Positions 769 through 18,319 of a stretch of DNA of 28,959 nucleotides are shown here, in pieces (the stretch's first letter is position 1; every line of letters begins with the position of its first letter). Under the pieces are notes generated by a model. That model was given only the letters and a program-made list of their open reading frames with translations, did no database searches and was not told where the DNA came from. This stretch comes from Deltaproteobacteria bacterium (lineage in GTDB: Bacteria; Desulfobacterota; JADFXK01), in NCBI GenBank assembly GCA_015233285.1, contig JADFYA010000004.1, forward strand, positions 1 through 28,959. The letters are read 5' to 3'. The position numbers and the translations under genes are program-made.

Positions 769-3378
769 TCACATGTCATGGCCGTAATTGCCGATTAAGA
801 AATTATTTTTCACCCTCTCGATACTGGCCTCATCACTCATCAGCATGTCCATCTGCCTGGTGAACAGGAGCAATCGGCCAATTGCTTCCAGCCGGTGCTT
901 TATAAAGTTTTGTTGATACTTTTGAAGCCTGGCCCCCACCCGGTCCTCCACCGCTTCCACCGTAAAATCAAGTTCCGCCAGGATGGCCGCAATGGCCCGG
1001 CAGCGCCGGTTTTTCCGGACGTCGTCGGCCGCCCCGCCCTTAAAAGTGAAGGTAATGTAATTCTTGTTCATCGTCTCACCGCAGTAGGCGTCTAACACAC
1101 TGTAATGATAACCGACCCGGGAACTAAAATTGAGATATTTGTCGGAAATAATGGCATAGCTGCGGTCGCCGAATCGTTCAGAGGCAAGGTTGGGCGGAGC
1201 CATCATCTGCTGCGAAACTACGGAGAAAAATCCTCTTAATTCTATGGGCTTAGGTTCATGCTGGCGGCTCAGTTGCTCATCCGTCATTCCGGCCAGCAAA
1301 GCCTGGAAAGGAATGCTGGCAATCTGGTCCGTCGTCACCTTGCGGGCCTTTCCGGTCAGGCCGGTGATTCCGCCACCCAGATCGATAACATGTAAATCCA
1401 ACGGCAGGGATGCTTTTAATTGAAGTGCTCCGCCGCCGCCTTCGGAAACAACGTCGCTTAGTTTAAACATCTCGCCGTAAGAGAGTTCATGGACCAGCCG
1501 CATGATGTCGTGGACCGTCTCGCAGTATTCCGCATTGAAATTAGGGGCGGTTGGGTCCAAAAGATGTAGCGGGACGATAAACCTGGCCAATTGTTTCAAT
1601 GTCTCGTATACCGGTGTCCCCTTCATCTTGGGTTTGTGGATCCTCTCCAGAGAGAGGAGTTCCGGGACTCGTCCTTCGTAAACTCGGCAACTATAGGCGT
1701 CAACCGTAACCTCTTGCCCTTCACGCAATGTTTTGGTCGCCTCTCCGGCATTTAGAATAGTCGGGATTTCAAACTCCCGGGATAGAGAGGCCATGTGGCC
1801 GGTGGCCGAACCGAAGTCGGTGATAATGGCGCCGGCCTTGGACATTAGAACTACGAATTTGGGTGAAGAGTGCCGGGCCACCAATACGCCGCCGTCAGGG
1901 AAGCTGACCAGGTCGTCTTCCGATCTGATCTGGTAGACAAGGCCGTATCCCACACCGGGAAAAGCGGCGTTACCACCTTCGAGCAGCAACTGATATTTTT
2001 CCAGACCTTGAATCTCTTGAACAGAGGGAATGTTCGCTTCAATCTGGGGAAAATTTAAGGGACGGGATTGGAGGATAATCAGATTCCCCTCCTGGTCTAA
2101 AGCCCATTCCATATCTTGGGGGCCGCCGTAGTGCTCCTCCAACCGCTGGGCGTACCGGGCCAGGGTGATGATCTGGTCTGAGGACAGCGCCGGGGCGTCT
2201 TGTTTCTCTGAAGGGACCGGGACCTCCATCAGGCCGCCCAGGGGATTGATGACCAGTTGCACCGGCTTATGGGAGATTTGTTCTTCTATAATAGTCTGCC
2301 GGCCGTCTTTTGCCACCTTATAAGTATCGGGAGTGACGATGCCGTCCACGGCGTAGGGGCCGAGACCCCAGACCGCGGTGATGATGATATTGTTCTCCTG
2401 GGGATGCAAAGGATCGCAGGAATACATCACTCCGCTGGCTATGGATTCAACCATCCGGATGCAGGCCACGCTCATGGCCACATCTTCCACCCGAATTCCT
2501 TTATTAAACCGGTATGAAATGGCCCGCGGGGTGAACAAGCTGGCCACGATGACTTTATAGGTGGAAATAAGTTTATCCCTGGTCACGTTTAACACCGAAA
2601 CGTACTGACCGGCAAAGGAGAGTTCGCTGTCTTCACCGATGGCGCTGCTGCGCATGGACACCCGGAGTTGCGGCGGTTGTGCCTCGGAGTCCGGGACGGT
2701 AGCCGTCAGGTCATCAAAGGCGGCTAAGACGGCCTGTTCCAACTCCGAAGGTACTGTGGCTGTAAAGATCAGTCGTTGGATGGCTTCGCTGCCCTCATGG
2801 ACGGATTCTGAGTCCTGGTCTCCCATTTCCACTTTGTATTTATTGATCTGGTCCGTCAGGTCATTGCTGTCTAGAAAAAGACGAAAAGCCCTGGTGGTGA
2901 TGGCGAATCCCTCAGGTACGGGCAGCCCCACCCGATTGCGCACCTCCCCCAGGTTGGCGTTTTTGCCGCCGACCCAATCGGCCATTTCTTTATTAACCAG
3001 AGCGTAAGGCAAAACCAATTCCGGAGGGTCTTCCCGTTCTTCTTCGCGAAGCACATTATTGATCTCAGCGTTAATTTTTTCCAGGGTTTGGTAAAAGGCC
3101 ATGTGCCTTTGACCGGAAAGCACATTTAAATTCTTGATCATCCGAATGGTGTGAAAGGTAAGCAAGGCTGTCTGCGAGCGGACATAAGACATGCCGAAAG
3201 GCTGGTACCCGTGCAGTTTGTCGCTGATATCCGACATTATCTTGGCAAGCTGGGCGTTGGAATCCAGCAATTCTTTGAAGCTGGTGTATTTCAACTGGAA
3301 TAAATCCGACAGTGTTCTTTTTGGAGTTTCGGCCGTGGGCTGCTTGCGCCACTTGAACAACTTAGAGATGTCGAACAT
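769..3378 (-). CDS. PEP-synthase-like protein: ATP-grasp + phosphohistidine domain, no PEP barrel (paralogue A)
   Basis: 869 residues. Residues 1-125 are a helical region with no family I recognise. Residues ~128-445 match the PPDK_N / PEP synthase ATP-binding fold: GGKNANLGE at 137-145, MRSSAIGED at 242-250, and the closing DMEWALDQEGNLIILQSRPL at 422-441. Residues ~490-570 are the swivelling phosphohistidine domain, with the presumed catalytic His528 in TGHMASLSREF. True PEP synthase or PPDK then has a ~300-residue PEP/pyruvate TIM barrel. Here residues ~585-869 are instead a different conserved domain, with SSRVGYHY, NYITFTFKGGAAD and TRQMDMLM motifs shared with the paralogue at 15704. The known enzymes move phosphate from ATP to this His and then to a substrate; the acceptor here is unknown. 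The gene follows the sigma-54 regulator by 122 bp and is probably co-transcribed. The ATG has a weak AGGGTGG ribosome site. Confidence 0.85.
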   Translation of the reverse strand: MFDISKLFKWRKQPTAETPKRTLSDLFQLKYTSFKELLDSNAQLAKIMSDISDKLHGYQPFGMSYVRSQTALLTFHTIRMIKNLNVLSGQRHMAFYQTLEKINAEINNVLREEEREDPPELVLPYALVNKEMADWVGGKNANLGEVRNRVGLPVPEGFAITTRAFRLFLDSNDLTDQINKYKVEMGDQDSESVHEGSEAIQRLIFTATVPSELEQAVLAAFDDLTATVPDSEAQPPQLRVSMRSSAIGEDSELSFAGQYVSVLNVTRDKLISTYKVIVASLFTPRAISYRFNKGIRVEDVAMSVACIRMVESIASGVMYSCDPLHPQENNIIITAVWGLGPYAVDGIVTPDTYKVAKDGRQTIIEEQISHKPVQLVINPLGGLMEVPVPSEKQDAPALSSDQIITLARYAQRLEEHYGGPQDMEWALDQEGNLIILQSRPLNFPQIEANIPSVQEIQGLEKYQLLLEGGNAAFPGVGYGLVYQIRSEDDLVSFPDGGVLVARHSSPKFVVLMSKAGAIITDFGSATGHMASLSREFEIPTILNAGEATKTLREGQEVTVDAYSCRVYEGRVPELLSLERIHKPKMKGTPVYETLKQLARFIVPLHLLDPTAPNFNAEYCETVHDIMRLVHELSYGEMFKLSDVVSEGGGGALQLKASLPLDLHVIDLGGGITGLTGKARKVTTDQIASIPFQALLAGMTDEQLSRQHEPKPIELRGFFSVVSQQMMAPPNLASERFGDRSYAIISDKYLNFSSRVGYHYSVLDAYCGETMNKNYITFTFKGGAADDVRKNRRCRAIAAILAELDFTVEAVEDRVGARLQKYQQNFIKHRLEAIGRLLLFTRQMDMLMSDEASIERVKNNFLIGNYGHDM

Positions 3379-3500
3379 AACACCACCCTGGATATGTGTT
3401 TTTAGTGTTTAAACCGCCCGATCGAGATTACACAGCTTAAATACAATCATCTGCGTTCTCTTTCTTTTCTCCCTGCCCCCGACAGTTATGGTTTCTTCGT

Positions 3501-6014
3501 TCAGGCGTTCGGATTGATCTCCTTGACCAGACAATAGCGCGTGGCGGGACCATGCCCCGTCCTTTTCAGTATCCCCTTCTTGACCATATCTTGCAGGTCG
3601 TTCAACGCGGTGCGAGAGGGGAAACCATTGCCCACGGCTTGCTGGTACTCCACCCGGGTAATCTCTCCCTTCTCGAAGAAAATTGAAAAGGCTTTTTTCT
3701 GTCTTTCGTTTAGATCCAGGTCGAGTGGAATAGAAGGCTTTTCTTCGGCCGATGGGCCGGACACAAATACTTCTGTCGGCAGATGAAACGGCTCAACTGC
3801 CGGGGGAGTCCTTTCCTCCTCCAGTCGGATATCATTAATATAAATCAGTTGTCCTTCGGCCATAGCCACGGCTCGAATAATACAATTCCTTAATTCCCTA
3901 ACATTTCCAGGCCAAATGTGAGCCAACAGTTTTTCCAGGGCGCCCTGGGTTAAGGCGACGTATTCTTTTTCCATTCGGATGGATGCCTGCCTGAGAAAAT
4001 GATTGGCCAGGGTGGGAATATTCTCTTTGTGATCCCGCAAGGCCGGAGTCCGAATGGTAATGACGTTGAGCCGATAATAGAGGTCTTCCCGGAAGCGCCC
4101 TTTGTCAACCAATTCTTTGAGCTCTTCGTTGGTCGCAGTAATGACCCGGACATCCACATCGAATTCGCGGTCACTGCCTAAGGGCGTGACTTTTCGGATG
4201 GACAAGGTTCGCAGCAGGGCCTGTTGGACTTTGGGGGAGGCGGTCCCGATTTCATCTAAGAACAGAGTTCCGCCATGGGCGGCTAAAAAAGCTCCCTTGC
4301 GGTCGGTCTTGGCCTCGGTGAATGCCCCTTTGGTGTGGCCAAACAAGGAATCCAACAACAGATTCTCATCTAAGGCACCGCAGTTGATGGAAATAAAGGC
4401 CTTGGCCGCTCTGACGCTGTATTTATGCACCGCTTCGGCGGTAAGTTGCTTCCCCGTACCCGTTTCTCCGATAATCAAGACGTCCGCATCCACCGACGCG
4501 GCTTTGAGTATCCCTACTTTGAGGGATTCGATCACTGGTCCGGAACCGATAATGTCACCGACATCGTGGGCTAATAATAAAGTGTTGGTCGGCGGCCGGT
4601 CCTCCTCCAAAATTGCCGGTCTTCCTTGCGTTACCTCCTGGATGCTGACATCTTTAAGCCGGATCTCTTCGAGCTGGTTCTTAATGGTATTGATCATGTT
4701 GTTGATGGAAAATCTGAGAAAATTTGTCTCAAAATCATGATTCTGCAATACTATTTCTCTTAACTCTCCGGTCTCCTGAATACGATTCACCGCCGCGGCC
4801 AGATCAAATATAGGTCGGGTGATCACCCGGCTGAGAACATAAATAACAAAGGCAATCATGATCATCGTAAACAGGCTGACGACGAAGATGACATCCACCT
4901 GCCGGTATCCGGCCCACAACCCCAGCCTGCTCCGGTCAACAAAGGCCACCCCGGCGTAGTTATCGGCCTTGCGGTCCAGTCCGGCTTTAAACCGGACGGG
5001 TGCGTAACCGATATTGACCAGATAGGCTCCAGTAGAGTAACCGGAATCATCAGACTGGATGGTTATCAAGCCTGGTTTCCCCGACTGTAAACTGCCGACC
5101 ATTTGCCAGAATTCGTTATGTTTAATATCAGGTTTAAACGCCCTTTCCAGTCCCGGTTTGCCGAAAATCCCGGAAAGACCTGTTCGGGCCGTTTCGGCCG
5201 ACAATTCCTTTGGTTTGTCATCTAATTCCTCGGACTGAAACAACATCCAGCCGTCCTTATCGAACATGTAGCAATACCTGACTTCCGGGCTTCTAACATA
5301 GGCAAAAATCGGGGACTGGGGTGAATTGTATAATGACAGGATATCCCGGACGCGGTGGGCATCCACACCGAGCATTAAGACCCCCTGGAGACGGCCGTCT
5401 GGTTTCCATAACATTACCGAGAACCTAATGATTTTGCGGACTGTGTTCCGGCCCAACAGTTTTCCTGAGGGCAGGGGATAGATCCCCTCGACGACGGGGG
5501 AGATAAGGACCTCGTCTCTGCCCAGTTTTTGCAAGTCCGCCAAAACGTCCGCAGTAGAAGGACGGATAAAAGGAATCTCGGGCGGAGGCACCTGGACCAG
5601 TTTATCGTCAATGCCGGCGAGGAAGATGGAGTTATCATTGGTGGGAGCGATAAAGGCGACTTCCGTATAGCTCCAACCGCGCATGTGTTGGTGCACGGTC
5701 CAGAACTGCTCTAGAGAAATTGCGGACATAGGTAATTGAGCCAACTCCAGCAAGTCCTCTTGGCATAGATTCAGGAACCCGCTGATCTCATGCGCTACGG
5801 CCAGGGCTTGAATGCGGACGCTTCTCTCCACGGCTTCATTCAGAAACTGTTTGGAGTACCAGTTGGTGACGTACCCGGTGGCGATCAAGATCAAGATAGT
5901 CGATGGGATAAGTCCCATGAGCAACTTAGTCCTGATATGGAAGGACCGGATGTTGGCCAGATCGAACCAGGCTAGTTTAAAGGTATCATCAAGGTACCTG
6001 ACGAGACGCAACAT
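3501..6014 (-). CDS. Membrane-bound sigma-54-dependent activator with winged-helix C-terminus
   Basis: 837 residues. TM1 is at ~32-52, an extracytoplasmic sensor (double-Cache-like size) at ~53-374, TM2 at ~375-398, and a HAMP-like linker to ~450. The sigma-54 AAA+ domain spans ~485-715, with Walker A GETGTGKQ at 516-523, the sigma-contact loop GAFTEA at 563-568 (canonical GAFTGA; acidic variants are known), Walker B GGTLFLDEI at 581-589, and WPGNVREL near 701. The C-terminus (~765-830) does not look like the usual Fis-type HTH. It resembles a winged helix, with ERQKKAFSIFFEKGEITRVE followed by a helix and wing. So it senses a periplasmic ligand directly and activates sigma-54 promoters from the membrane. 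The start is supported by CAGGAGG nine bases upstream. A sigma-54 promoter lies just upstream, suggesting positive autoregulation, and the divergent TauE operon is the obvious target. Confidence 0.93.
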   Translation of the reverse strand: MLRLVRYLDDTFKLAWFDLANIRSFHIRTKLLMGLIPSTILILIATGYVTNWYSKQFLNEAVERSVRIQALAVAHEISGFLNLCQEDLLELAQLPMSAISLEQFWTVHQHMRGWSYTEVAFIAPTNDNSIFLAGIDDKLVQVPPPEIPFIRPSTADVLADLQKLGRDEVLISPVVEGIYPLPSGKLLGRNTVRKIIRFSVMLWKPDGRLQGVLMLGVDAHRVRDILSLYNSPQSPIFAYVRSPEVRYCYMFDKDGWMLFQSEELDDKPKELSAETARTGLSGIFGKPGLERAFKPDIKHNEFWQMVGSLQSGKPGLITIQSDDSGYSTGAYLVNIGYAPVRFKAGLDRKADNYAGVAFVDRSRLGLWAGYRQVDVIFVVSLFTMIMIAFVIYVLSRVITRPIFDLAAAVNRIQETGELREIVLQNHDFETNFLRFSINNMINTIKNQLEEIRLKDVSIQEVTQGRPAILEEDRPPTNTLLLAHDVGDIIGSGPVIESLKVGILKAASVDADVLIIGETGTGKQLTAEAVHKYSVRAAKAFISINCGALDENLLLDSLFGHTKGAFTEAKTDRKGAFLAAHGGTLFLDEIGTASPKVQQALLRTLSIRKVTPLGSDREFDVDVRVITATNEELKELVDKGRFREDLYYRLNVITIRTPALRDHKENIPTLANHFLRQASIRMEKEYVALTQGALEKLLAHIWPGNVRELRNCIIRAVAMAEGQLIYINDIRLEEERTPPAVEPFHLPTEVFVSGPSAEEKPSIPLDLDLNERQKKAFSIFFEKGEITRVEYQQAVGNGFPSRTALNDLQDMVKKGILKRTGHGPATRYCLVKEINPNA

Positions 6015-6069
6015 ACTTTACTCTGCCTCCTGAAGGATGGGATCATTTTTTTGGTAAACACTATAGCAT

Positions 6070-6085
6070 AGCAAAGGTCATGCCA
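6070..6085 (-). promoter_or_regulatory. Sigma-54 promoter of the activator gene
   Basis: On the minus strand the sequence is TGGCATGACCTTTGCT. The -24 GG is at 6083-6084 and the -12 GC at 6071-6072, separated by exactly 10 bases. It differs from the TGGCACRNNNNTTGCW consensus only at C to T in the -24 box. Transcription should begin near 6059, giving a ~45-nt leader before the ATG at 6014. Confidence 0.75.
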
Positions 6086-6246: not shown

Positions 6247-6269
6247 GGGCGGTCCGATCAAATCTAGAG

Positions 6270-6379: not shown

Positions 6380-6435
6380 ATCTCGCCAGATTTTTTGGCA
6401 TAGCCCTTGCAAGAATTACGGGCAACTGGCGAGAT
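6380..6435. promoter_or_regulatory. Inverted CTCGCCA boxes bracketing the plus-strand sigma-54 promoter
   Basis: ATCTCGCCAG at 6380-6389 and its exact reverse complement CTGGCGAGAT at 6426-6435 are centred on the sigma-54 promoter at 6396-6411. Sites this close to a promoter more often repress or fine-tune it than act as distant enhancers, so they may give negative feedback at high activator levels (inference). Confidence 0.5.
6396..6411 (+). promoter_or_regulatory. Sigma-54 promoter of the TauE operon
   Basis: TGGCATAGCCCTTGCA: GG at 6397-6398 and GC at 6409-6410 with the obligatory 10-base gap, one mismatch to consensus (C to T in the -24 box). It has the same TGGCAT element as the divergent activator promoter. 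The predicted start is near 6422, leaving a ~140-nt leader before the first gene. Confidence 0.78.
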
Positions 6436-7958: not shown

Positions 7959-8294
7959 ATGAAGAGAAATCCGGTTTTCTGGTGTGTCACCCTTCTTTTC
8001 CTGGTCTTTTGTTTTGGCCCGGCCTGGGCTGCCGAAGTTAGCCAGGGAAACTGCATCAGCGTCAATGACAAGGACAAAACTTTGACCATTGAGGAATATG
8101 ACCTCAATTTCACCAAAGATAAGCCTTACGGCCATCCGACGGGGAAGAATTCCACTTATAACATTGCAATGGCCTTGATCGGCATCCCGCCGGCAAAAGG
8201 GGATGTGCTCAGGATATCCTACGACGTCAAAGGGACCGAGAGGATCGCTCTCAAGATCATGAATGTGTCAAAACAAGATTTGAAGAAGAAGTAA
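7959..8294 (+). CDS. Small periplasmic protein of TauE operon
   Basis: 111 residues with a strong signal peptide (cleavage likely after AWA at residue ~24). The mature ~87-residue domain is rich in short beta strands and ends in a basic KKK tail. No lipobox or transmembrane segment follows, so it should be soluble in the periplasm. It begins 15 bp after the permease stop with its own AAGGAGG site. A substrate-binding or gating role for the permease is possible but unproven; I do not recognise the family. Confidence 0.8.
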   Translation: MKRNPVFWCVTLLFLVFCFGPAWAAEVSQGNCISVNDKDKTLTIEEYDLNFTKDKPYGHPTGKNSTYNIAMALIGIPPAKGDVLRISYDVKGTERIALKIMNVSKQDLKKK

Positions 8295-8712: not shown

Positions 8713-9138
8713 TATATTTTCGGTCAACTAACCCCCTAAATTGTGTCCCCGCTTAGACCCCCCCGGTCGAGAGCAGCATTATTAACATATATCCGCCAGG
8801 CGGATGAGATTCAGATAGGTCAGGGTCTCATCCGTCCGGCGCCAAGTCCACCTTTCCCGCTTCACCCTCCGGCCCTTCCATTTACACCTCGTAAAAAAAG
8901 CTGACACTTCAAAACTAAGGACGCGCCCTCAGGCCAAACCCGGCGACCGATTTATCTAATTCTTTTAAATTTGTTCCGGTCACCCTGAGTTGGTGCGAAC
9001 ATTGCTTACAAGCTTATATTAGACCATGGGACCAAAGGATGGGGGCCCGGAATGGTCATCGATTCCTGAAGTTCGGACCCGGCAGTTACAAGGTCTTGGC
9101 GTCGGGTGGGCATACTCGCAATGAGGGAGGTCGATTCC
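8713..9138 (+). other. Intergenic region with long hairpin and possible sigma-54 promoter
   Basis: The region holds an imperfect 15-bp stem (8795-8809 with 8826-8840, 13 of 15 paired, 16-nt loop) not followed by a T-run, and a sigma-54-like site at 8991-9006. No gene is seen. Confidence 0.5.
8991..9006 (+). promoter_or_regulatory. Possible sigma-54 promoter for the receiver gene at 9139
   Basis: TGGTGCGAACATTGCT keeps GG (8992-8993), a 10-base gap and TTGC(T), but the -24 element is TGGTGC rather than TGGCAC. It is weaker than the two promoters in the divergent region. Confidence 0.45.
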
Positions 9139-9546
9139 ATGAATGATCGGTTCACCATCTTGGTAGCTGATCGAAACCGATACGTCCGAGATTTTCTCCG
9201 CCGTGAATTTGCCGCAGCCGGATACCGGGTGGTGGTAGCCAAAGACGCCATCGAGCTACGGCGGCTTATCCAACGGTGCCGGCCACTTCATCTTCTCGTT
9301 TTAGATTTGGAGATTCCTTATATGGGCGGGGTTACCGTGTTGGAACAAATCAGGCTGGAGTACCCCTCCTTGCCCGTAATTCTTCATATGTTCATGACGG
9401 AGGAGATGAGCCATCCCGCTTTCCAAGATGTTGCGGCAGTGGTAGAAAAGAGTGGCAATCCTGATGAATTGATGCGGACGGTGAGCCAGGCTTTGCGCCG
9501 CCGGTATCCTCAAGACTTTGTGGCGGAGCATGCAGAAGTGCTGTAA
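9139..9546 (+). CDS. Single-domain response regulator (receiver only)
   Basis: 135 residues from the ATG at 9139, chosen because GGGAGG lies eight bases upstream; a longer frame from 9106 lacks one. It is a receiver domain with no output domain: LVADRNRY (one acidic residue instead of the usual pair), phospho-acceptor Asp in LVLDLEIPYMGG, and Lys in VVEKSG. The Thr/Ser switch position after strand 4 is replaced (LHMFM). It may act as a phosphate sink or bind a partner protein. It sits between the two TauE modules and has no adjacent kinase on its own side; the kinase at 10067 is the nearest candidate. Confidence 0.82.
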   Translation: MNDRFTILVADRNRYVRDFLRREFAAAGYRVVVAKDAIELRRLIQRCRPLHLLVLDLEIPYMGGVTVLEQIRLEYPSLPVILHMFMTEEMSHPAFQDVAAVVEKSGNPDELMRTVSQALRRRYPQDFVAEHAEVL

Positions 9547-9655: not shown

Positions 9656-9656
9656 C

Positions 9657-10032: not shown

Positions 10033-10066
10033 AACCGCAACCGGCAACTTGCAAACTGAGCAGGCA

Positions 10067-11866
10067 ATGACGAAAGAACAATACTATTCCTTATTAACCA
10101 GAAGAATGATTCTAATCGTGATGTTGGTGTCGTTTGCCCCGCTCGTCCTGATTATGGGCCTAACCGGTTATAATTTCCATACATCATATAAAAACAAGGT
10201 TATCGACCACTTAGAAGAAATCGTCAGAAAGCATAAACAGCATGTCGACGATTTTCTAATGGAAAAATTAGCTGATCTCAATGTGCTGGCCTCTTCATTT
10301 AGTCCTGAGGTGCTGAGCCAAGAAAAATTTCTGCAGGAGTTGTTAGGCCATCTTAGGAAGGGGGGCGGCGGCACTTTCTCTGATTTAGGCCTGGTGGACG
10401 AACAGGGTATCCAGGTGGCTTATGCCGGGCCGTTTAATCTGGGCCGGGCCAATTACATGGCCGCCGAGTGGTTTATTGAGTCTAAACGAAGTAGTTACTA
10501 TATCAGCGACGTATTTTTGGGCCTTAGGGGCATCCCTCATTTTGTCATCGCGGTTAAGAAAGACTGGCAAGGCCGGCAATGGATATTTAGAGCCACCATT
10601 GATTTTGACTCTTTTAACCGGTTGGTGGAGAATATTCACATCGGAAAAACAGGCATGGCCTTTATCATTAGTAAGGCTGGCGCCTTCCAGACCAAACCGC
10701 GGATGGATATCCGGGCCGAAAAAGACATGCTTTTAGATTTTATCCGGAAACAAAAAATCGGGACGGAAGGAAAGCCGCCTAAAGAAGACCGTCTTGATGC
10801 TCCAATTTTAGCTCAGAACAATTTCGCGGCCGGGGATGTGCTGGTCGTTTCTCCCGATCAGCAGCCTTTGAATCAACATATGATTTATTTTATCTCGCCA
10901 CTCAAAAATGGAGAATGGTTTTTAATCTACCGGCAGGACGAAGGTGATGCTTTTTCGGATTTATATCGGGCCCGGACACTGGCTTTCGGTATTTTTTTGT
11001 TGGGTGGTCTGGTTATTACAGTTACGGCATTTCTTTTGTCTAAGCGAATGGTCAATCGGATCGCCCGGGCTGACCGTGAAAAAGAGATGATGAACGAGCA
11101 GGTCATCGAAACAGGCAAGCTGGCTTCGTTAGGTGAATTGGCCGCCGGGATCGCCCATGAGATAAACAATCCGGTGGCGATCATGGTTGAGGAGGCGGGA
11201 TGGATTCAAGACATGCTGGAGGCGGATGAGTTTAAGCAGAGCGAGGATTATGAGGAGATGCAGAGGGCGGTTAATCAAATCCGGACCCAGGGAGGGCGAT
11301 GTAAAGAGATCACCCACAAACTCCTCAGCTTTGCCCGGCGGACAGATCCGGCCGTGAAAGAAGTTCAACTGAACTCTATGGTTAACGAGATGGCCGATTT
11401 CTCAGAGCAACGGGCCAAGTATTCGAATGTCGTGTTTCAGCTTGATTTAGCTCCGGATATACCTCCGATTGCCGCTTCTCCCTCTGAGATCCAGCAGGTG
11501 TTGCTGAATTTCGTTAATAACGCCATCGATGCTATGAACGAAAAAGGTGGCGTTTTAACTATGACTACCCGCCGTGAAAACGATTTCATTGTCCTAAACG
11601 TGTCCGATACCGGTCAGGGGATCCCCCAGGCGAATCTGCAGCGCATTTTTGATCCTTTTTTTACCACCAAGCCGGTGGGCAAGGGAACCGGCCTCGGCCT
11701 GTCTATTTGCTATGGAATTATTGAAAAAATGGGCGGTCGAATCAGCGTCAACAGCGCGGTCGGAGTGGGGACCACATTCCACATTCACCTCCCGGTGGTC
11801 AGGGAAGAGGACGATGAGGAGGAAGAACCGCAGGCCGATTCAGCGACATATACATACTTTGACTAG
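10067..11866 (+). CDS. Membrane sensor histidine kinase
   Basis: 599 residues from the ATG at 10067. A TTG 18 bases earlier is in frame but lies inside a heptamer repeat, so I reject it. TM1 is at ~13-36, an extracytoplasmic Cache-type sensor at ~37-300, and TM2 at ~304-324. HisKA has the H-box [14 protein letters not shown] (His364 in this numbering). The HATPase_c domain has the N-box [11 protein letters not shown]1 [10 protein letters not shown]-box FDPFFTT and G2 [10 protein letters not shown], ending in an acidic tail. All residues for autokinase activity are present. Three receiver proteins follow directly, then the second TauE permease, so this is the likely sensor for module B. Confidence 0.92.
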
Positions 11867-11895
11867 TTTATTTGGATACCCGGGGAGGAAGTCAC

Positions 11896-12330
11896 ATGAA
11901 CAAGACGTTGGTCTTGCTGGTCGATGACGAAGTTCCTTTTGTAGAGACGATGAGCAAACGTTTGACCAAGAGAGAGTTGGACGTCCTGACCGCATTCAGC
12001 GGTCCTGAAGCCTTAAAACAACTCGACGAACACCCCGACGTGGACGTGGCCGTTTTGGGGGTCAAGATGCCCGGAATGGACGGGATTGAGACCCTAAGAG
12101 AAATAAAAAGACTTCATCCTTCGGTGGAAGTGGTCATGTTGACCGGCTACGGGACTATCGAAAGCGCCATCGACGGGATGAAACAAGGGGCCTTTGATTT
12201 CATGGTCAAACCCTGCGATATGGACCTGTTGATGAACAAGATTAAGGAAGCGAAGAATAAAAAGACCCAGCACGAACAAAAAATAATTGAAGCTAAGAAT
12301 CTGGAAATTATTTTGCGAAAGGGCAATTAG
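11896..12330 (+). CDS. Receiver-domain protein lacking the phospho-acceptor Asp
   Basis: 144 residues from the ATG at 11896 (GGGGAGGAA upstream). The fold is a normal receiver: acidic pair Asp10-Asp11, MLTGYG with the switch Thr, and MVKPCD with the conserved Lys. At the phosphorylation site the sequence is AVLGVKMPGMDG: Gly55 (codon GGG at 12058-12060) replaces the invariant Asp. It therefore probably cannot be phosphorylated normally and may be a decoy or fixed-state binding protein. The C-terminus is a Lys/Glu-rich helix. It starts 29 bp after the kinase gene. Confidence 0.85.
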   Translation: MNKTLVLLVDDEVPFVETMSKRLTKRELDVLTAFSGPEALKQLDEHPDVDVAVLGVKMPGMDGIETLREIKRLHPSVEVVMLTGYGTIESAIDGMKQGAFDFMVKPCDMDLLMNKIKEAKNKKTQHEQKIIEAKNLEIILRKGN

Positions 12331-12340
12331 GGATAGGCCT

Positions 12341-12763
12341 ATGAATTCCCTTAAGATTGATCCTCATGAGCCCATCCGGTTGTTGTTAATTGATAATGAT
12401 ATTAATTACTTAAATGTTTTGGCCCGGAGGCTTGGCCGGCGGAATATGAGCGTCGTCCCGACGGTCAGCGGAAGCCGGGGTATTCAGGTCCTCCGTAAAG
12501 AAGATTTTGACACCGCGGTCGTGGACCTGAAGACAGAAGATGTGGATGGGCTTGAATTAGTAAAGATATTTAAGAAAATGGCGCCAGCGATGCCGGTCAT
12601 CCTGCTCGCCGGTCATGGTTCGGAACATGTGGCCCGGCAAGGCATGATTTTGGGGGCCGTTGATTACCTGACTAAACCATGTGAATTGGGAGAGTTGGTA
12701 GAGAAAATCCGGCAAGCGGCCGCCGGTGGAACCGGTTCGCAGGTAGGGCGGATGAAGGATTGA
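12341..12763 (+). CDS. Single-domain response regulator
   Basis: 140 residues from the ATG at 12341, ten bases after the previous stop. A longer upstream frame overlaps the previous gene and is less likely. It is a receiver with LLLIDNDINY (acidic site), phospho-acceptor Asp in TAVVDLKTEDVDG, LLAGHG in place of the usual Thr-containing switch, and YLTKPCE with the conserved Lys. The usual MPGMDG loop is altered to TEDVDG. There is no DNA-binding domain. It is the second of three receivers behind the kinase at 10067. Confidence 0.83.
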   Translation: MNSLKIDPHEPIRLLLIDNDINYLNVLARRLGRRNMSVVPTVSGSRGIQVLRKEDFDTAVVDLKTEDVDGLELVKIFKKMAPAMPVILLAGHGSEHVARQGMILGAVDYLTKPCELGELVEKIRQAAAGGTGSQVGRMKD

Positions 12764-12875: not shown

Positions 12876-13292
12876 ATGGAAGGGATGAAAGTATTGTTTG
12901 TTGACGACGAAGTAGAGTTTTTGGACACCCTGCTGAAGCGGATGCGAAAGCGCCATGTTGATGTCACAGGCGTTAACAACGGCGAGCAGGCCTTGGCCGC
13001 CTTGACCCGGAATCCGGTGGACGTGGTGGTGCTCGATGTCAGAATGCCGGGAATGGACGGCATCCAGGTGCTGGGAGAGATCAAAAAAAGCTGGCCCCTG
13101 ACCGAGGTGATTATGTTGACCGGCCATGCCTCGCTGGAGGTGGCGAAAGAGGGAATGGAAAGCGGGGCTTTCGACTATCTGATGAAGCCGATCAATATTG
13201 ATGAGTTACTTTACAAGCTGCAAGATGCTTTTCAGAAGAAATCCATACACGAGAAGAAAATCAAAAATATAGAGGAGGTGATCAGGACCTGA
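12876..13292 (+). CDS. Canonical single-domain response regulator
   Basis: 138 residues, with GGAGGTAAG ahead of the ATG. All receiver signature residues are present: FVDDE acidic pair, phospho-acceptor Asp in VVVLDVRMPGMDG, MLTGHA with Thr, and YLMKPIN with Lys. A short Lys-rich helical tail (KKSIHEKKIKNIEEV) follows; there is no output domain. It is the best phosphorylation target of the three receivers, and closely resembles the one at 11896 except for that protein's missing Asp. It lies 214 bp before the TauE permease of module B. Confidence 0.88.
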   Translation: MEGMKVLFVDDEVEFLDTLLKRMRKRHVDVTGVNNGEQALAALTRNPVDVVVLDVRMPGMDGIQVLGEIKKSWPLTEVIMLTGHASLEVAKEGMESGAFDYLMKPINIDELLYKLQDAFQKKSIHEKKIKNIEEVIRT

Positions 13293-13311
13293 CTTCTAAT
13301 TGACGGTAATC

Positions 13312-13331
13312 CAGGTTATCCTGATAACCTG
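13312..13331. promoter_or_regulatory. 20-bp perfect palindrome upstream of TauE copy B, candidate operator
   Basis: CAGGTTATC at 13312-13320, two bases CT, then GATAACCTG at 13323-13331. A 2-base centre is too tight for an RNA hairpin loop without opening the stem and no T-run follows. A dimeric repressor or activator site is more likely than a terminator. It lies ~175 bp before the permease ATG. The rest of the 13293-13506 spacer shows nothing else clear. Confidence 0.5.
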
Positions 13332-13506
13332 TCGGTATTTGTCGGAACGAGCGAAAAGCCTTGCATCGGGGCAAAGATTCAGGCCATTCAGGAGGTTAGG
13401 AGCCAGGCCGGGATTCAAACTCTGAGCCGTTCAGCCGTCAACTAATTAATCAGTGGCGCGTATTTCTTTCAAGAGTCAATAACTAATCAAAAGGAGTGCC
13501 AAAAAA

Positions 13507-14790
13507 ATGAATTTCTTCAAACAATGGGGCCAATTCATGATGATGGGCGCCAGAGCCCATGCCAAGTGGGAACTGGAGATGTCCAATAACATAATGAAAG
13601 ACCGCAAGCGACTTTTGATATTAGGGCTGTTGCTTGTACCTATTCTTTTAGGGGGGATTGCTTTTGCCGACCAACTCGGTGACGCCATTCCGAAAATGAT
13701 AGGAGATAAAAAGGCTTATAGCCCGGCATTCTTTACCGCAGGCATTTTTATTGCTTCCATCCTGATCGGCCTGGGGGCCGGGCTCATTACCGGCTGTATC
13801 GGCGCCGGCGGCGGATTTATCATCGCTCCGGCCTTGATGAGCGCCGGGATCAAAGGTATCTTGGCCGTGGGGACCGACTTGTTTCATATCTTCGCCAAGG
13901 CCATCATGGGGAGCGTCATCCACCGGAAGTTAGGAAATATTTCAGTGCCTCTGGCCTTGATTTTTCTCTTAGGAGCCATCGTCGGGGCCACCACCGGCGG
14001 GGTCATCAACCGTTGGTTGTATGATTTGAACCCGATCGCCAGTGATGCTTTTATTACCACGATTTACGTCTTGATGTTGGGTATCCTGGGCTGCTATGCT
14101 CTGCTCGACTTCCTCAAAGCCAGTAAGGCTCCCGGAGGTGGGGGTAGCGCCCACGGCGGCAAGGACGAAGGAGCCCAAATGGGCTCGCTCCCGAAAAAAC
14201 TCCAATCAATGACCATTCCGCCGATGATCACTTTTGATCAAGGTCTGGTTCCGGGTGGCCGCCGCATCTCCGCCTTGTTCCTGGTCTTGAGCGGTGGCCT
14301 GGTCGGTCTATGTGCATCCATCATGGGCGTTGGTGGCGGTTTCCTAACCTTCCCCATTTTTGTTTATGTCTTGGGTGTGTCCTCTATGACCACGGTGGGC
14401 ACCGATATCTTTCAGATTATTTTCACCGCCGGTTACGCCGCCATCTCTCAATATGCCATTTTTGGGTTTATCTTCTACACTCTGGCCATGGGCATGCTCC
14501 TGGGGTCTTTGCTGGGCATCCAAATTGGGGCCTTGGTCACCAAAGTGGTTAAGGGAATTACCATCCGGGGATTTTATGCCATGGCCGTCTTGGCCGGTTT
14601 CGTTAATCGAGTTTTTGCCTTGCCGACCAAGCTGGGGGAGATGGATATTATCCCCATTTCAAAATCAACCGGAGCGGTTCTTGAGTCCATCGGTGTTTAT
14701 GCCTTCTTCATCGTCATCGGCATATTCGCGGTCTGGGTAATCGGCACCTTCCTTAAGAATATTCCCCTGCTCAAGGGAGAGGAGGCTTAA
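13507..14790 (+). CDS. TauE/SafE-family anion permease (copy B)
   Basis: 427 residues, longer than copy A because of an N-terminal extension. Residues 1-35 are polar and amphipathic with several Met; a hydrophobic helix follows at ~36-54 and an extracytoplasmic stretch to ~74. The two TauE repeats carry GCIGAGGGF (96-104) with GTDLFH (122-127), and IMGVGGGFL (272-280) with GTDIFQ (298-303). A Gly-rich charged loop (~205-250) lies between the halves. AAAAGGAG precedes the ATG. The next gene starts two bases after the stop, so the two are translationally linked. Family transport chemistry is as for copy A; substrate unknown. Confidence 0.92.
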   Translation: MNFFKQWGQFMMMGARAHAKWELEMSNNIMKDRKRLLILGLLLVPILLGGIAFADQLGDAIPKMIGDKKAYSPAFFTAGIFIASILIGLGAGLITGCIGAGGGFIIAPALMSAGIKGILAVGTDLFHIFAKAIMGSVIHRKLGNISVPLALIFLLGAIVGATTGGVINRWLYDLNPIASDAFITTIYVLMLGILGCYALLDFLKASKAPGGGGSAHGGKDEGAQMGSLPKKLQSMTIPPMITFDQGLVPGGRRISALFLVLSGGLVGLCASIMGVGGGFLTFPIFVYVLGVSSMTTVGTDIFQIIFTAGYAAISQYAIFGFIFYTLAMGMLLGSLLGIQIGALVTKVVKGITIRGFYAMAVLAGFVNRVFALPTKLGEMDIIPISKSTGAVLESIGVYAFFIVIGIFAVWVIGTFLKNIPLLKGEEA

Positions 14791-14792
14791 TC

Positions 14793-15482
14793 ATGATTGC
14801 GCACAAAAAAGAATTTTTTGGTGGAGTTGCGTTGATGGTCGCCTTTTTGGTGGTGTTGCTAATCTTCTTTCTACCGATTTACGGCGGCGGCAAAAACGGA
14901 CTAGACTACTTAGATTCGCTATATAATTCCATTTCAAAGGGGTCGGCCTATTATATCCCCAAAGTAAAAAAAGACAACGAACCATTTAAAGCCAAGAATA
15001 TCGAGTTGATCTTGACCATGGTTAGCCCCAATCAGGCTCAGGAATCCGTCGGTCTGTTGGCCAAATCCGGAGCGACCGCCACGGCTATGGGAGATAAATT
15101 GACCATCGGCGGGAGCCTGGGAAAGATCTTGGCCAATTGTCTGGATGATTCGGATGACATGTTCCATAACAACGGGGCCAAGGTCAAAGACAAATATGGA
15201 TATGATGAAAAAAAGGTCCTATACAATTGGTACACAATGTTGAAGTCGATGGATAAGGAAATGAAAAAGACAGGCCTTTACCCCGAAGCCAAGTTCGTCA
15301 CCACGGTTTCCAAACGGGCGGTCGAATGCTCATTTAATTATTACAAAATTGAGCCGCAGAGCATCTCCAGCAAGATGGGGATGGTCATTTTTTCCCTGCT
15401 TTTCTATGTCATCTATACCCTGTGGTATGGTTACGCCATCATGTTTATGTTTGAAGGATGGGGGCTCAAGTTGGGCCACTAA
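14793..15482 (+). CDS. Two-pass membrane protein with periplasmic domain, TauE partner
   Basis: 229 residues. TM1 is at ~11-31, an extracytoplasmic domain of ~160 residues (Lys/Asp-rich, with Cys in LANCLDDSDD and AVECSFNYY that could pair) follows, then TM2 at ~197-218 and a short C-terminal tail. The start is two bases after the permease stop, with GAGAGGAGG inside the end of the permease gene. Tight coupling suggests a permanent complex with TauE copy B, comparable to the small membrane and periplasmic proteins beside copy A. No known family is recognised. Confidence 0.82.
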   Translation: MIAHKKEFFGGVALMVAFLVVLLIFFLPIYGGGKNGLDYLDSLYNSISKGSAYYIPKVKKDNEPFKAKNIELILTMVSPNQAQESVGLLAKSGATATAMGDKLTIGGSLGKILANCLDDSDDMFHNNGAKVKDKYGYDEKKVLYNWYTMLKSMDKEMKKTGLYPEAKFVTTVSKRAVECSFNYYKIEPQSISSKMGMVIFSLLFYVIYTLWYGYAIMFMFEGWGLKLGH

Positions 15483-15493
15483 CTGATTCCGGC

Positions 15494-15525
15494 CTGGGCC
15501 GTTTTCCTTAATGGAGGCGGCCCAG
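15494..15525 (+). terminator. Hairpin after the TauE copy B operon
   Basis: CTGGGCCG (15494-15501) pairs with CGGCCCAG (15518-15525), beginning 12 bases after the stop codon. The following bases are not a clean T-run, so termination strength is uncertain. Confidence 0.5.
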
Positions 15526-15681
15526 CTTGTCACTTGTTGCTTGTCACTTGTTGCTTGTTACTTGTTGCTGGTTGGATATTACCCAATTTTAATTTAAATA
15601 GCCCTATAGTCATCGAGCACAAACTAACGACGTGTAACTTGAAACGTGTAACTTGAAACGAGCAACCAGAAACCAGAAACC
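15526..15681. repeat. Facing heptamer arrays (locus 2)
   Basis: 15526-15574 is seven consecutive 7-mers (CTTGTCA, CTTGTTG, CTTGTCA, CTTGTTG, CTTGTTA, CTTGTTG, CTGGTTG). 15630-15681 is seven more in the opposite sense (ACGTGTA, ACTTGAA, ACGTGTA, ACTTGAA, ACGAGCA, ACCAGAA, ACCAGAA, then ACC). The 55-bp spacer is AT-rich. The second array ends 22 bases before the gene start chosen at 15704. Confidence 0.8.
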
Positions 15682-15703
15682 TTTTTTGCCGCATAGAGAC
15701 GTT

Positions 15704-18319
15704 ATGGGTCTAGTCCAAAGCCTGGTGAATACCTTCTGGCCTAAGAGGCAACAAAGAGATGCGCAAGAAGTTGAAGAACTGCGGATTGATTTTAAGGCGC
15801 GGTATCACAACTTCAAGCTACTTTTGAGTGCCAACAACAGGTCGTTGGAGATCATGGCCGAGATGGAGCAGGCGCTGCAAGGAGACCGTCCTTTTGGGAT
15901 GAATTTTATCAAAGCTCATTCGACCGCTGTTTCAGTTAATGTTTTCCGCATGATAAAGAATTTGAACGAGATCGCTCACGGAAAATATCAGGATCTATAT
16001 AAGAGTTTCGACGCCATCCAATTTCAAGTGGAGAATCTTCTCACCCGAAAGAAGTCTGTTTCGGACGAGAGACTGGTCATTTACCTGGATGAGGTGGATA
16101 AAGATCTGGCCGACCTGGTGGGAAATAAGATGGCCAACCTGGGTGAGCTGAAGAACAAGGTCAAGGTGGCCGTGCCTGGAGGCTTTGCCATCACCTCATA
16201 CGCGTATCAAAGGTTTCTAGAGCATAATAACCTCCAGGCAGAGATTGACAGCCGCTTTCAATCTGCCGGGGTGGAAGACATAGAACAATTGTATTCCTTG
16301 AGCGCCGAGGTTCAACAGTTGATCATCCGCTCCAAGTTACCCCAAGACCTGGAGGAGTCCATCATGAATTCCTTTCTCCGCCTGGAAGCCGAAGCCGGGA
16401 GGAGAATCACGGTGGCTTTGAGAAGCAGCGCCCTGGGGGAGGATTCGGGTGAAAGCTCATTTGCCGGCCAGTACCGGTCCGAACTAAACGTCAGCGTCGA
16501 GAATATCATTGAGGCCTACAAAGAGATCATCGCCAGCAAGTACAGTCTTCCAGCCATAACATATAGACTGAACAAGGGATTCAAAGACGAAGATATTTCC
16601 ATGTGTGTCGGCTGCCTGGTCATGGTCGACGCCGCGTCCGGTGGTGTCACTTATTCCCGGAACCCGGTGGATATCAACGATGACTCAGTGTTCATCAACT
16701 CGGCCTGGGGTCTACCCAAATCGGTGGTTGACGGGAGTGTCAATTGTGATCTGACCGTGGTGTCGCGAAAAAAGCCAATGACGATCATTCGACGGGAGAT
16801 TAAGGATAAGGACGTTAAGTTTGTCTGTTACCCCCAAGAAGGCTTGTGCCGGGTGGAACTGACCGGCGATGTCGGCCGGGCGTCCTCGGTAGATCCGGAT
16901 CAGGCCCTTGCCTTAGCCGAATTGGCCATATTAATTGAAGATCATTATGGTTGCCCCCAAGATATTGAGTGGGCGGTGACCTCCGACGGGGAGATCAAGC
17001 TCCTCCAATGCCGTCCGCTGCAACAGATGCCCGGAAAAGAAACCGACTCTCCAGGAGATGTCCAAGATGACGACGACACCGCTCTGGCTAGAGGCGGAAT
17101 CACGGCCAGTTCCGGGGTTGCTTGCGGCCAGGTTTTTCTGGCGGATAGGGCGGTGGATATCTTGCAGTTTCCGCCGGGAGCGGTTCTGGTCACGCACCAG
17201 GCATTGCCCCGCTGGGCCTCTTTACTCAACCGGGCGGCCGCGGTCGTAACCGAACAAGGGGGATTTGCCGGTCATCTGGCCAATGTGGCCCGCGAGTTCG
17301 CTGTTCCGGCCCTATTTGGCGTTGCCGGCGCAGTGGAAAAGCTTAGACACGAAGAGTTGGTTACGGTTGATGCCGGTGGCCGGGTGATCTACCGGGGGCG
17401 GATTGAGGATTTGTTGCTCAAGGCCGATAGTAATGGCAAGAAAAACTTGATGGAAGGCAGTCCGGTGTTTGACACCCTCAAGGACGTCAGCCGGCACATC
17501 ATCCCCCTAACCTTGATAGACCCGGATGCCAAAGAGTTTGTCCCGGCGAATTGTACAACCTTTCACGATATTACCCGCTATGTCCATGAAAAGTCCGTTC
17601 AGGAGATGTTCAATTTCGGGAAAGAGCATAATTTTTCGGAGAGGTCAAGCAAACAGCTTTACTATCATGCGCCCATGATGTGGTGGATCCTGAACTTAGA
17701 CGATGGTTTCAAAGAAGAAGTAACCGGAAAATATATTAAAATAGAGAATATTGGGTCAAAGCCGATGTTGGCCCTCTGGGACGGAATCGTGGCCATCCCT
17801 TGGGATGGGCCGCCCCCCATAGATGGAAAAGGACTCATGTCGGTGATGTTTCAGGCTACCCAAAATACTTCCCTGAACACCGGGGTGAAGTCTAAATACA
17901 GCGAACGAAATTATTTTATGATTTCAAAAAATTACTGCTGTCTTAATTCCCGGCTGGGATTTCATTTTTGTACTATTGAGGCGCTGATCGGGGATCGGCC
18001 GAGCGAGAATTATATCAGCTTCCAGTTTAAAGGCGGTGCCGCCGACTATGACCGGCGGCTTAAGCGGGTCATATTTGTGGGTGAGATATTACAGGAATAC
18101 GGGTTCAGAACAGAGATAAAAGAGGACACCATGATTTCCCGCTTAGAAGGGCATGACCAGGAATTCATGATAAGCCGCCTTAAAATTATCGGTTACTTAT
18201 CCATCCATACCCGGCAGTTGGATATGATCATGACTCACAGCGGTAAGGTGACCTATTACCGGAACAAGATCAAAGAAGATATCAAGACCATACTGGCCCA
18301 GCCGGCCGGCCGCGCCTAG
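15704..18319 (+). CDS. PEP-synthase-like protein, ATP-grasp + phosphohistidine domain, no PEP barrel (paralogue B)
   Basis: 871 residues from the ATG at 15704. An in-frame TTG at 15653 would add residues encoded by heptamer repeat, so I reject it. The architecture matches the 769-3378 protein. There is a helical N-terminus with the shared PFGMxFI/V and FRMIKNLN segments, and an ATP-binding domain with VGNKMANLGEL, LRSSALGED (239-247) and DIEWAVTSDGEIKLLQCRPL. The swivelling domain has its presumed phospho-His at residue 524 in GFAGHLANVAREF. The C-terminal ~300-residue domain carries NSRLGFHF, NYISFQFKGGAAD and TRQLDMIM. The PEP/pyruvate TIM barrel is absent. It follows the TauE copy B pair by 221 bp and probably serves the same pathway; whether it phosphorylates a protein or a small molecule is unknown. 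Confidence 0.87.
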   Translation: MGLVQSLVNTFWPKRQQRDAQEVEELRIDFKARYHNFKLLLSANNRSLEIMAEMEQALQGDRPFGMNFIKAHSTAVSVNVFRMIKNLNEIAHGKYQDLYKSFDAIQFQVENLLTRKKSVSDERLVIYLDEVDKDLADLVGNKMANLGELKNKVKVAVPGGFAITSYAYQRFLEHNNLQAEIDSRFQSAGVEDIEQLYSLSAEVQQLIIRSKLPQDLEESIMNSFLRLEAEAGRRITVALRSSALGEDSGESSFAGQYRSELNVSVENIIEAYKEIIASKYSLPAITYRLNKGFKDEDISMCVGCLVMVDAASGGVTYSRNPVDINDDSVFINSAWGLPKSVVDGSVNCDLTVVSRKKPMTIIRREIKDKDVKFVCYPQEGLCRVELTGDVGRASSVDPDQALALAELAILIEDHYGCPQDIEWAVTSDGEIKLLQCRPLQQMPGKETDSPGDVQDDDDTALARGGITASSGVACGQVFLADRAVDILQFPPGAVLVTHQALPRWASLLNRAAAVVTEQGGFAGHLANVAREFAVPALFGVAGAVEKLRHEELVTVDAGGRVIYRGRIEDLLLKADSNGKKNLMEGSPVFDTLKDVSRHIIPLTLIDPDAKEFVPANCTTFHDITRYVHEKSVQEMFNFGKEHNFSERSSKQLYYHAPMMWWILNLDDGFKEEVTGKYIKIENIGSKPMLALWDGIVAIPWDGPPPIDGKGLMSVMFQATQNTSLNTGVKSKYSERNYFMISKNYCCLNSRLGFHFCTIEALIGDRPSENYISFQFKGGAADYDRRLKRVIFVGEILQEYGFRTEIKEDTMISRLEGHDQEFMISRLKIIGYLSIHTRQLDMIMTHSGKVTYYRNKIKEDIKTILAQPAGRA

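What the first reader, a model, noticed from the sequence alone, without database searches (positions are those of the whole stretch)
769..18319. Two 'PEP synthases' with the PEP barrel replaced by an unknown domain, each next to a TauE permease
Both proteins (769-3378, 15704-18319) keep the ATP-grasp domain and a His in the swivelling domain. They lack the TIM barrel that makes or uses PEP and instead share a ~300-residue C-terminal domain with NYI(T/S)F-x-FKGGAAD, SR(V/L)G(Y/F)H and TRQ(M/L)DM motifs, plus a shared helical N-terminus. Known barrel-less relatives such as rifampicin phosphotransferase pass the phospho-His group to a different substrate held by another domain. Here each copy sits with a permease, small membrane partners and phospho-signalling genes, so a transport-linked or signalling phosphotransferase is plausible.
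Basis: partly seen in the sequence, partly recalled or inferred. Interest (0 to 1): 0.8.

Follow-up and report, generated by a model that had tools for sequence, protein, structure and literature searches.

The report
Barrel-less PEP-synthase-like kinases beside permeases
Two bacterial proteins that look like the enzyme making phosphoenolpyruvate have lost that enzyme's business end and carry an undescribed domain instead; they belong to a very large, mislabelled family that often travels with anion-transport genes and may control them by passing phosphate groups.

Summary
P0001 (15704-18319, +) and P0002 (769-3378, minus strand) share the ATP-grasp and phospho-His swivel domains of PEP synthase. 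Neither has a PEP/pyruvate-barrel match. Instead they share a roughly 300-residue C-terminal domain with no Pfam or NCBIfam match and no convincing fold match, plus a helical N-terminus. Searches found 3,038 related protein clusters, often named 'pyruvate, water dikinase'. In 169 distinct long members the swivel His is kept in 166 and four C-terminal residues in all.

The TauE link is real: 53 of 129 family ORFs have TauE within 3 kb (about 1.6% expected). One clade sits beside, or is fused to, a dual-specificity phosphatase. One such locus has the gene order of the published 'nitrate cluster' of Desulfovibrio, where insertions in the TauE, receiver and dikinase-like genes gave nitrate resistance (PMC4001038). 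The authors read this as blocked anion entry.

Best reading: an ATP-dependent His phosphotransferase with a new acceptor domain that controls anion permeases. Architecture and gene linkage are shown here, the genetics are published; the phosphotransfer, its target, direct action on the permease and membership of DVU0246 are inferred. New variant of a known kind.

The parts
15704..18319 (+). PEP-synthase-like phosphotransferase A (P0001, 871 aa): helical N-terminus 1-120, ATP-grasp 137-446, phospho-His swivel 489-557 (His524), new C-terminal domain about 570-871
17396..18316 (+). new C-terminal domain of protein A (residues 565-871); invariant Asp622, His754, Arg788, Asp840
769..3378 (-). PEP-synthase-like phosphotransferase B (P0002, 869 aa): ATP-grasp 135-443, swivel 493-563 (His528), new C-terminal domain about 571-869
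772..1668 (-). new C-terminal domain of protein B (residues 571-869)
3501..6014 (-). sigma-54 activator with a weak HAMP match and a long N-terminal part that looks membrane-anchored, directly upstream of gene B on the same strand
   Evidence: same gene pair in L084, L086, L100, L105, L107
6894..7943 (+). TauE/SafE permease B, divergent from the sigma-54 activator
7959..8294 (+). small protein with a signal-like start, weak match to the end of DUF4881 (below cut-off)
9106..9546 (+). receiver-domain protein
10049..11866 (+). dCache sensor histidine kinase
   Evidence: homologues upstream of the TauE-A operon in L007, L008, L010, L015
11872..12330 (+). receiver-like protein with Gly where the homologues have the phospho-acceptor Asp
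12287..12763 (+). receiver-like protein
12876..13292 (+). receiver-domain protein
13507..14790 (+). TauE/SafE permease A
14793..15482 (+). small protein, apparently membrane-bound, between permease A and phosphotransferase A; no Pfam family reaches its cut-off
18555..19835 (+). DUF190 plus four CBS domains, downstream of phosphotransferase A

Best explanation
These are dikinase-type phosphotransferases. The ATP-grasp domain splits ATP and phosphorylates the His of the swivel domain (His524/His528). The swivel then carries the phosphate not to pyruvate but to an acceptor held by the new C-terminal domain. The conserved His754, Arg788, Asp622 and Asp840 would hold that acceptor, or His754 itself would be the acceptor. 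The phosphorylated product switches on an inorganic-anion permease module: TauE with its small membrane partner here, other ion transporters in some relatives. Receiver proteins and sensor kinases feed the signal in, and in one clade a dual-specificity phosphatase acts on the same path. Shown here: architecture, conservation, gene linkage, phosphatase neighbour and fusion. Shown by others in Desulfovibrio: the permease, receiver and dikinase-like genes of a cluster with matching gene order are needed for nitrate sensitivity. Inferred: the phosphotransfer itself, the acceptor, action on transport rather than metabolism, and that DVU0246 belongs to this family (gene order only).
For: Architecture. 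Among 169 distinct genes of 700+ aa: swivel His in 166, ATP-grasp Glu246 and Arg437 in 168 each, Lys142 in 164; in the C-terminal domain Asp622, His754, Arg788 and Asp840 in 169 of 169. TauE within 3 kb in 53 of 129 family ORFs (128 genes), and in 41 of 87 with at least 5 kb on both sides, against about 1.6% expected; the usual form is TauE, one small gene, then this gene on the same strand. A small receiver is the adjacent gene in 51 of 129; two genomes hold only 11 and 12 such receivers (my count of its rows). Phosphatase: 35 of 40 phosphatase loci have a domain-bearing gene adjacent on the same strand or fused, 2 of them fused. Gene order of the nitrate cluster in L188, with phenotypes in PMC4001038. 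A PEP-barrel protein is encoded elsewhere in 16 of 18 genomes.
Against: No biochemistry exists. 22 of the 87 well-flanked ORFs had no TauE, no SLC13-type transporter and no phosphatase within 5 kb; L014, with 10 kb on each side, has no TauE. In the phosphatase clade only 10 of 35 loci have TauE and 11 of 35 PtxB within 9 kb. Two stand-alone C-terminal-domain proteins lack the ATP-grasp and swivel domains, and two long members have Arg at the swivel His, so the domain does not always need a phospho-His in cis. Two of 18 genomes (G012, G103) show no PEP-barrel protein at all. DVU0246 is placed by gene order only; its reported gene (2235 bp) is about 100 residues shorter than L188's protein. In D. 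vulgaris the phosphatase mutants (insertion and deletion) stayed nitrate sensitive, the sensor-kinase gene is annotated a pseudogene and gave little or no advantage, and pooled and single-mutant results for DVU0250 disagree. Rex mutants are also nitrate resistant, and Rex is reported, in a reference title only, to repress sulfate adenylyl transferase, so resistance need not mean blocked entry.
Confidence: 0.46

Rival explanations
1. Metabolic kinase: the C-terminal domain binds a small molecule, perhaps one brought in by the permease, and the enzyme phosphorylates it as rifampicin phosphotransferase does its drug. The phosphatase would act on the same compound.
For: The relatives with a known second substrate that score best are small-molecule enzymes; the C-terminal invariants look like a binding site; the phosphatase resembles DSP and, weakly, phytase-like families.
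Against: No nitrate use by these strains has been shown, yet loss of the dikinase-like gene protects like loss of the permease (PMC4001038), which fits control of entry better. The transporter types differ between loci.
Confidence: 0.26
2. Two-component accessory: the protein passes phosphate to, or is controlled by, the neighbouring receivers and acts on transcription only; the permease, or sulfate-reduction genes, are among the targets.
For: A small receiver is adjacent in 51 of 129; sensor kinases and a sigma-54 activator are neighbours; a transcription factor mutant (rex) gives the same nitrate resistance.
Against: Pfam finds no DNA-binding domain in P0001 or P0002; the permease and a small gene are frequent same-strand neighbours.
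Confidence: 0.18
3. Ligase of the PigC/RedH type that uses the phospho-His step to activate a carboxylate for condensation.
For: PigC and RedH models score over the ATP-grasp part.
Against: Those scores (187-221 bits) are far below cut-offs of 1300 and 1350; no biosynthetic cluster was evident among the neighbours that recur.
Confidence: 0.05
4. Ordinary PEP synthase or PPDK with a diverged barrel.
For: Database names 'pyruvate, water dikinase'; G012 and G103 show no other PEP-barrel protein.
Against: No PEP-utilizers_C match, no barrel enzyme of this family among the fold matches listed, mixed strands and helices instead of an alternating barrel in the model, barrel proteins elsewhere in 16 of 18 genomes.
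Confidence: 0.02

Closest known systems
PEP synthase (pyruvate, water dikinase) and PPDK
   Different: No PEP/pyruvate-barrel match; a new domain stands in its place; an extra helical N-terminus of about 120 residues
Rifampicin phosphotransferase (RPH)
   Different: In RPH the swivel is C-terminal and the middle domain binds the drug; here the swivel is in the middle and the last domain was not seen to match RPH in the domain search
Desulfovibrio nitrate cluster DVU0251-DVU0245 / Dde_0597-Dde_0605 (PMC4001038)
   Same: Gene types of Dde_0598-Dde_0605 as tabulated, in the same order as L188: TauE, hypothetical, PtxB, sensor kinase, receiver, PPDK_N plus mobile domain, dual-specificity phosphatase
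   Different: Around the window's copies no PtxB or phosphatase gene of these types was seen, and the copies lie on other branches of the family; the passages and section of the paper that I read do not mention the new domain
PTS enzyme I
   Same: Swivel His domain; a phospho-relay tied to transport (family knowledge)
   Different: ATP-grasp domain present, so ATP rather than PEP is the likely donor; enzyme I models score far below cut-off; no PEP barrel

Membership tests
PEP synthase | PPDK_N ATP-grasp domain | tested here: met
   E 2.1e-92 and 1.1e-95
PEP synthase | phospho-His mobile domain with the His | tested here: met
   His in 166 of 169 distinct genes
PEP synthase | C-terminal PEP/pyruvate domain (PF02896) | tested here: not met
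   no match at E up to 0.1 in either protein
PEP synthase | NCBIfam PEP_synth cut-off (739.75 bits) | tested here: not met
   339.3 and 363.4 bits
PEP synthase | TIM-barrel fold of the last domain | tested here: inconclusive
Rifampicin phosphotransferase | order ATP-grasp, drug-binding, swivel at the C-terminus | tested here: not met
   swivel at 489-557 of 871 and 493-563 of 869
Rifampicin phosphotransferase | NCBIfam RIF_Ptrans_rph cut-off (999 bits) | tested here: not met
   215.9 and 229.9 bits
PTS enzyme I | PTS_I family cut-off (341.7 bits) | tested here: not met
   23.4 bits for P0002; not listed for P0001 (24 families listed)
Desulfovibrio nitrate cluster system | gene order TauE-hypothetical-PtxB-kinase-receiver-dikinase-like-phosphatase in a family member's locus | tested here: met
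   complete in L188; L181 has it with TauE divergent; not in the window
Desulfovibrio nitrate cluster system | DVU0246/Dde_0604 carries the new C-terminal domain | not tested
   its sequence could not be fetched here; inferred from synteny
TauE/SafE permeases (PF01925) | Pfam cut-off (32.6 bits) | tested here: met
   137.3 and 119 bits

The most novel reading that the evidence does not exclude
An ATP-driven phospho-His relay that gates inorganic-anion permeases (TauE and SLC13-type): a transport-control system comparable to the PTS but working on oxyanions, present in a large share of Desulfobacterota genomes, with its own phosphatase in one clade, and hidden behind the label 'pyruvate, water dikinase'.
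Probability: 0.3. Interest if true: 0.87.

Novelty: new variant of a known kind. Interest (0 to 1): 0.67.

Why it matters
Thousands of protein clusters related to these two, many of them named after PEP synthase, appear to lack the domain that binds pyruvate and PEP. Correcting this affects metabolic reconstructions of sulfate reducers. If the regulatory reading is right, it gives a mechanism to a published but unexplained set of nitrate-resistance genes and links ATP-dependent phosphotransfer to anion entry, which bears on how nitrate limits souring. The domain has no model in the Pfam and NCBIfam copies searched, occurs alone and in a phosphatase fusion, and offers a ready set of residues to mutate.

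Tried and rejected

Sigma-54 promoter pattern in the window: 4 matches against 1.6 expected, and 5 of 100 shuffles reach 4; one at 6396 (+) lies about 0.5 kb upstream of TauE B and one at 6071 (-) just upstream of the activator. Too weak to claim.

I tried to reach DVU0246 itself. The third homologue search started from the phosphatase-linked protein of L151; the names shown were Desulfogranum, Desulforhopalus, Desulfopila and the like, with no Desulfovibrio name among the 120 listed of 737.

Genome-level co-occurrence (mean 7.1 TauE matches in 47 genomes with the domain against 2.4 in 71 without) is confounded by kinship and genome size and is not used as proof. The enrichment figures treat loci as independent although many are related; on a FastTree tree the TauE label (within 5 kb) needs 26 changes over 64 rows and the phosphatase label 2 over 35, of 155 rows. 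SLC13-type transporters within 5 kb in 15 of 87 well-flanked ORFs were not compared with a background. Distribution outside the phylum was not measured: the one attempt failed.

Selection: the 100 stretches L053-L152 were picked by me from the roughly 150 matches printed (its list was cut), and some printed matches were not fetched; of the 129 ORFs counted there, 42 have less than 5 kb on one side, one is a cut second copy of a gene already counted (L065/L129) and one pair shares identical blocks between two genomes (L066/L068). One search counted 195 ORFs for conservation; 26 of these were second copies or near-identical, so the report uses the 169. The 40 phosphatase stretches L163-L202 were picked from the matches printed, which searched 394 genomes and matched 65. 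The receiver background comes from two genomes only. The class of G001 holds one genome, so searches added little beyond.

Odds: after reading section 16 of PMC4001038 and the Rex reference I lowered the best explanation from 0.5 to 0.46 and the novel case from 0.33 to 0.30, and raised the transcriptional rival.
Full report
WHAT IS THERE. The two ORFs are real: 15704-18319 on the plus strand (P0001, 871 aa) and 769-3378 on the minus strand (P0002, 869 aa). They are 35% identical along nearly their whole length. Pfam gives each a PPDK_N ATP-grasp domain (137-446 and 135-443) and a PEP-utilizers mobile domain (489-557 and 493-563); nothing else reaches its cut-off, and the PEP-utilizers_C barrel is not among the matches up to E 0.1. 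NCBIfam PEP synthase models stop near residue 570-580 and fall well below their cut-offs. The PDB sequence search with P0001 agrees: matches to the three best PEP synthases end at residue 566-588.

THE NEW DOMAIN. Residues from about 570 on form a shared domain. Searches with that part found 3,038 protein clusters from P0001 (of 5,294 candidates) and 1,504 from P0002 (of 7,994 scored). The 120 listed in each of these and in a third search (737 found) carry only the two Pfam domains named above. Where a source gives a name, it is mostly a desulfo- or 'Deltaproteobacteria'/Thermodesulfobacteriota label, with a few that say only Proteobacteria or Pseudomonadota. One locus (L016, 4.6 kb) comes from a MAG labelled Thermoleophilia. 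A full-length AlphaFold2 model of P0001 has mean pLDDT 85.4 and pTM 0.72; the C-terminal part is mostly at 70-95, with weak stretches at about 641-650, 701-740 and the last residues. Its order of strands and helices does not look like an eight-fold alternating barrel. Folded alone the domain reached only pLDDT 71.9 and matched no solved structure convincingly. I therefore say 'no known fold found', not 'new fold'.

CONSERVATION. Of 195 ORFs of 700+ aa with the domain, from the fetched loci and the window, 26 are second or near-identical copies, leaving 169 distinct genes. Among these the swivel His is kept in 166 (two have Arg, one a gap), Glu246 and Arg437 of the ATP-grasp domain in 168 each, and Lys142 in 164. 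In the C-terminal domain Asp622, His754, Arg788 and Asp840 are invariant, with His621 in 166 and His628 in 168. This is the pattern of a working phosphotransferase and a working second site.

NEIGHBOURHOOD. In 118 genomes of the phylum the domain was found in 47. Of 129 domain-bearing ORFs in 100 stretches, 53 had a TauE gene within 3 kb and 66 within 5 kb; among the 87 with 5 kb on both sides, 41 and 51. With 2.02 TauE matches per Mb in the same genomes, about 1.6% and 2.4% are expected. The commonest layout is TauE, one small gene, then this gene, same strand, with a gap of about 0.6-1.2 kb. The small gene falls into at least two groups: the window's own type (15 loci) and another (17 loci) whose tested representative is Alph_Pro_TM (PF09608). 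Of the 15 named loci L006-L020, eight show TauE, the small gene and this gene together (L007, L008, L010, L011, L015, L016, L017, L020); most of the rest are short or begin near the gene, but L014 has 10 kb on both sides and no TauE. In L007, L008, L010 and L015 the kinase and receivers precede TauE as in the window. The B arrangement, with a sigma-54 activator beside the gene and a divergent TauE about 3 kb away, recurs in L084 and L086, and L100, L105 and L107 have the same activator beside the gene with TauE 3.2-3.4 kb away. SLC13/CitMHS-type anion transporters lie within 5 kb of 15 of the 87. A small receiver gene is directly adjacent in 51 of 129; G096 and G049 encode 11 and 12 receivers under 200 aa in 1.9 and 2.7 Mb, by my count of the rows. 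In 22 of the 87 none of TauE, SLC13-type transporter or phosphatase was within 5 kb.

NOT THE GENOMES' PEP SYNTHASE. Of 18 chosen genomes with the family or its phosphatase neighbour, 16 encode PF02896 proteins; 14 of the 18 have one in a frame of PEP synthase or PPDK size (816-967 aa), the others being enzyme I-sized or about 1,200 aa. G012 and G103 have none.

PHOSPHATASE CLADE. In one branch the next gene is a dual-specificity phosphatase of about 360 aa. Of 40 phosphatase loci fetched, 35 have a domain-bearing gene adjacent on the same strand or fused; of the other five, two end at the contig edge, two have a family gene within about 4 kb, and one has none in the stretch. Two genomes of one family carry both in a single ORF of 1259 and 1252 aa. 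The phosphatase label needs only 2 changes on the tree (35 of 155 rows). Two genomes carry a 393-aa protein with the helical N-terminus joined directly to the C-terminal domain, without ATP-grasp and swivel, next to the phosphatase (L172, L194). So the N-terminus and C-terminal domain can form a unit of their own. Within 9 kb, PtxB was found in 11 and TauE in 10 of the 35.

LINK TO PUBLISHED GENETICS. In L188 the order is TauE, a 212-aa hypothetical, a phosphonate-binding protein (PF12974), a HAMP/PAS sensor kinase, a 120-aa receiver, the family member (852 aa as listed) and a 362-aa phosphatase. This matches the gene types tabulated for Dde_0598-Dde_0605 / DVU0251-DVU0245, the nitrate cluster (PMC4001038; passages and section 16). 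There, D. vulgaris insertion mutants in the TauE gene, the small gene, the receiver and the dikinase-like gene grew equally with or without 100 mM nitrate, while the phosphatase-gene mutants stayed inhibited; results for the small gene differ between pooled and single tests, and the kinase gene is annotated a pseudogene in D. vulgaris. The authors hypothesise that the genes let nitrate in through a leaky thiosulfate transporter, partly from unpublished data. If the operon runs from TauE to the phosphatase, as the numbering suggests (the figure was not available), the dikinase-like mutant cannot owe its phenotype to polarity on TauE, and polarity on the phosphatase gene does not explain it either; that is my inference. 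Rex mutants are also resistant, so another route, through sulfate-reduction genes, is open. L151 adds a hint: a molybdopterin oxidoreductase-like gene and a ferredoxin-like gene, my reading of their sequences, lie on the same strand near the TauE cluster.

MECHANISM. Established chemistry of the superfamily (RPH paper, abstract and passages) is ATP to AMP and Pi with a phospho-His that swivels between two sites. The conserved residues say that the first half is kept. The second half must use an acceptor other than pyruvate if the barrel is indeed gone. The genetics suggest that the protein acts together with the permease and a receiver; the fusion suggests that a phosphatase acts on the same path. 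I therefore favour a regulatory phosphotransferase for anion permeases (0.46), ahead of a small-molecule kinase (0.26) and a purely transcriptional role (0.18).

NOVELTY. Ten paper searches ran. PMC4001038 is the only paper among their listings that I found to treat the cluster. PMC3431258 mentions DVU0251 once in a list of transcripts (passage); PMC6454106 cites the Rex and nitrate papers (passages); PMC5840216 says that TSUP-family (TauE-type) proteins are abundant in sulfate reducers and that predicting their function is not feasible (passages); PMC7531388, PMC4018673, PMC13099321 and the other titles were seen as listings only. None that I saw describes the domain; subscription journals are largely outside that library. 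P0001 and P0002 have no Pfam or NCBIfam match over most of this part, and the stand-alone form L194 matched no family in either. This is a new variant of the dikinase superfamily rather than a new kind of chemistry.

Noticed in passing
window 11872-12330: Receiver-like protein whose phospho-acceptor Asp position reads Gly (VAVLGVKMPGMDG); three homologues in L008, L010 and L015 have Asp.
   Followed up: partly
window 23012-26073: Two overlapping ORFs in different frames that look like one sensor kinase interrupted near 24500; could be a frameshift or an assembly error. Not mended.
   Followed up: no
window 20273-22526: Three universal-stress-protein-like genes downstream of the A operon (Pfam checked for the first only); such genes occur within 5 kb of 21 of 129 family ORFs.
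   Followed up: partly
L172 10277-11458 and L194 9808-10989: Stand-alone form of the new domain (393 aa) without ATP-grasp and swivel domains, beside a dual-specificity phosphatase.
   Followed up: partly
L178 6513-10292 and L196 1480-5238: Single ORFs fusing the phosphotransferase to the dual-specificity phosphatase.
   Followed up: yes
L080 7463-10150 and L081 4890-7637: Two long family members with Arg where the others have the swivel His; each lies in one stretch with a second family member that keeps the His.
   Followed up: no
L151 16443-19042: Ferredoxin-like and molybdopterin oxidoreductase-like genes on the same strand as a TauE/phosphotransferase/phosphatase cluster; possible thiosulfate or polysulfide reductase.
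   Followed up: no
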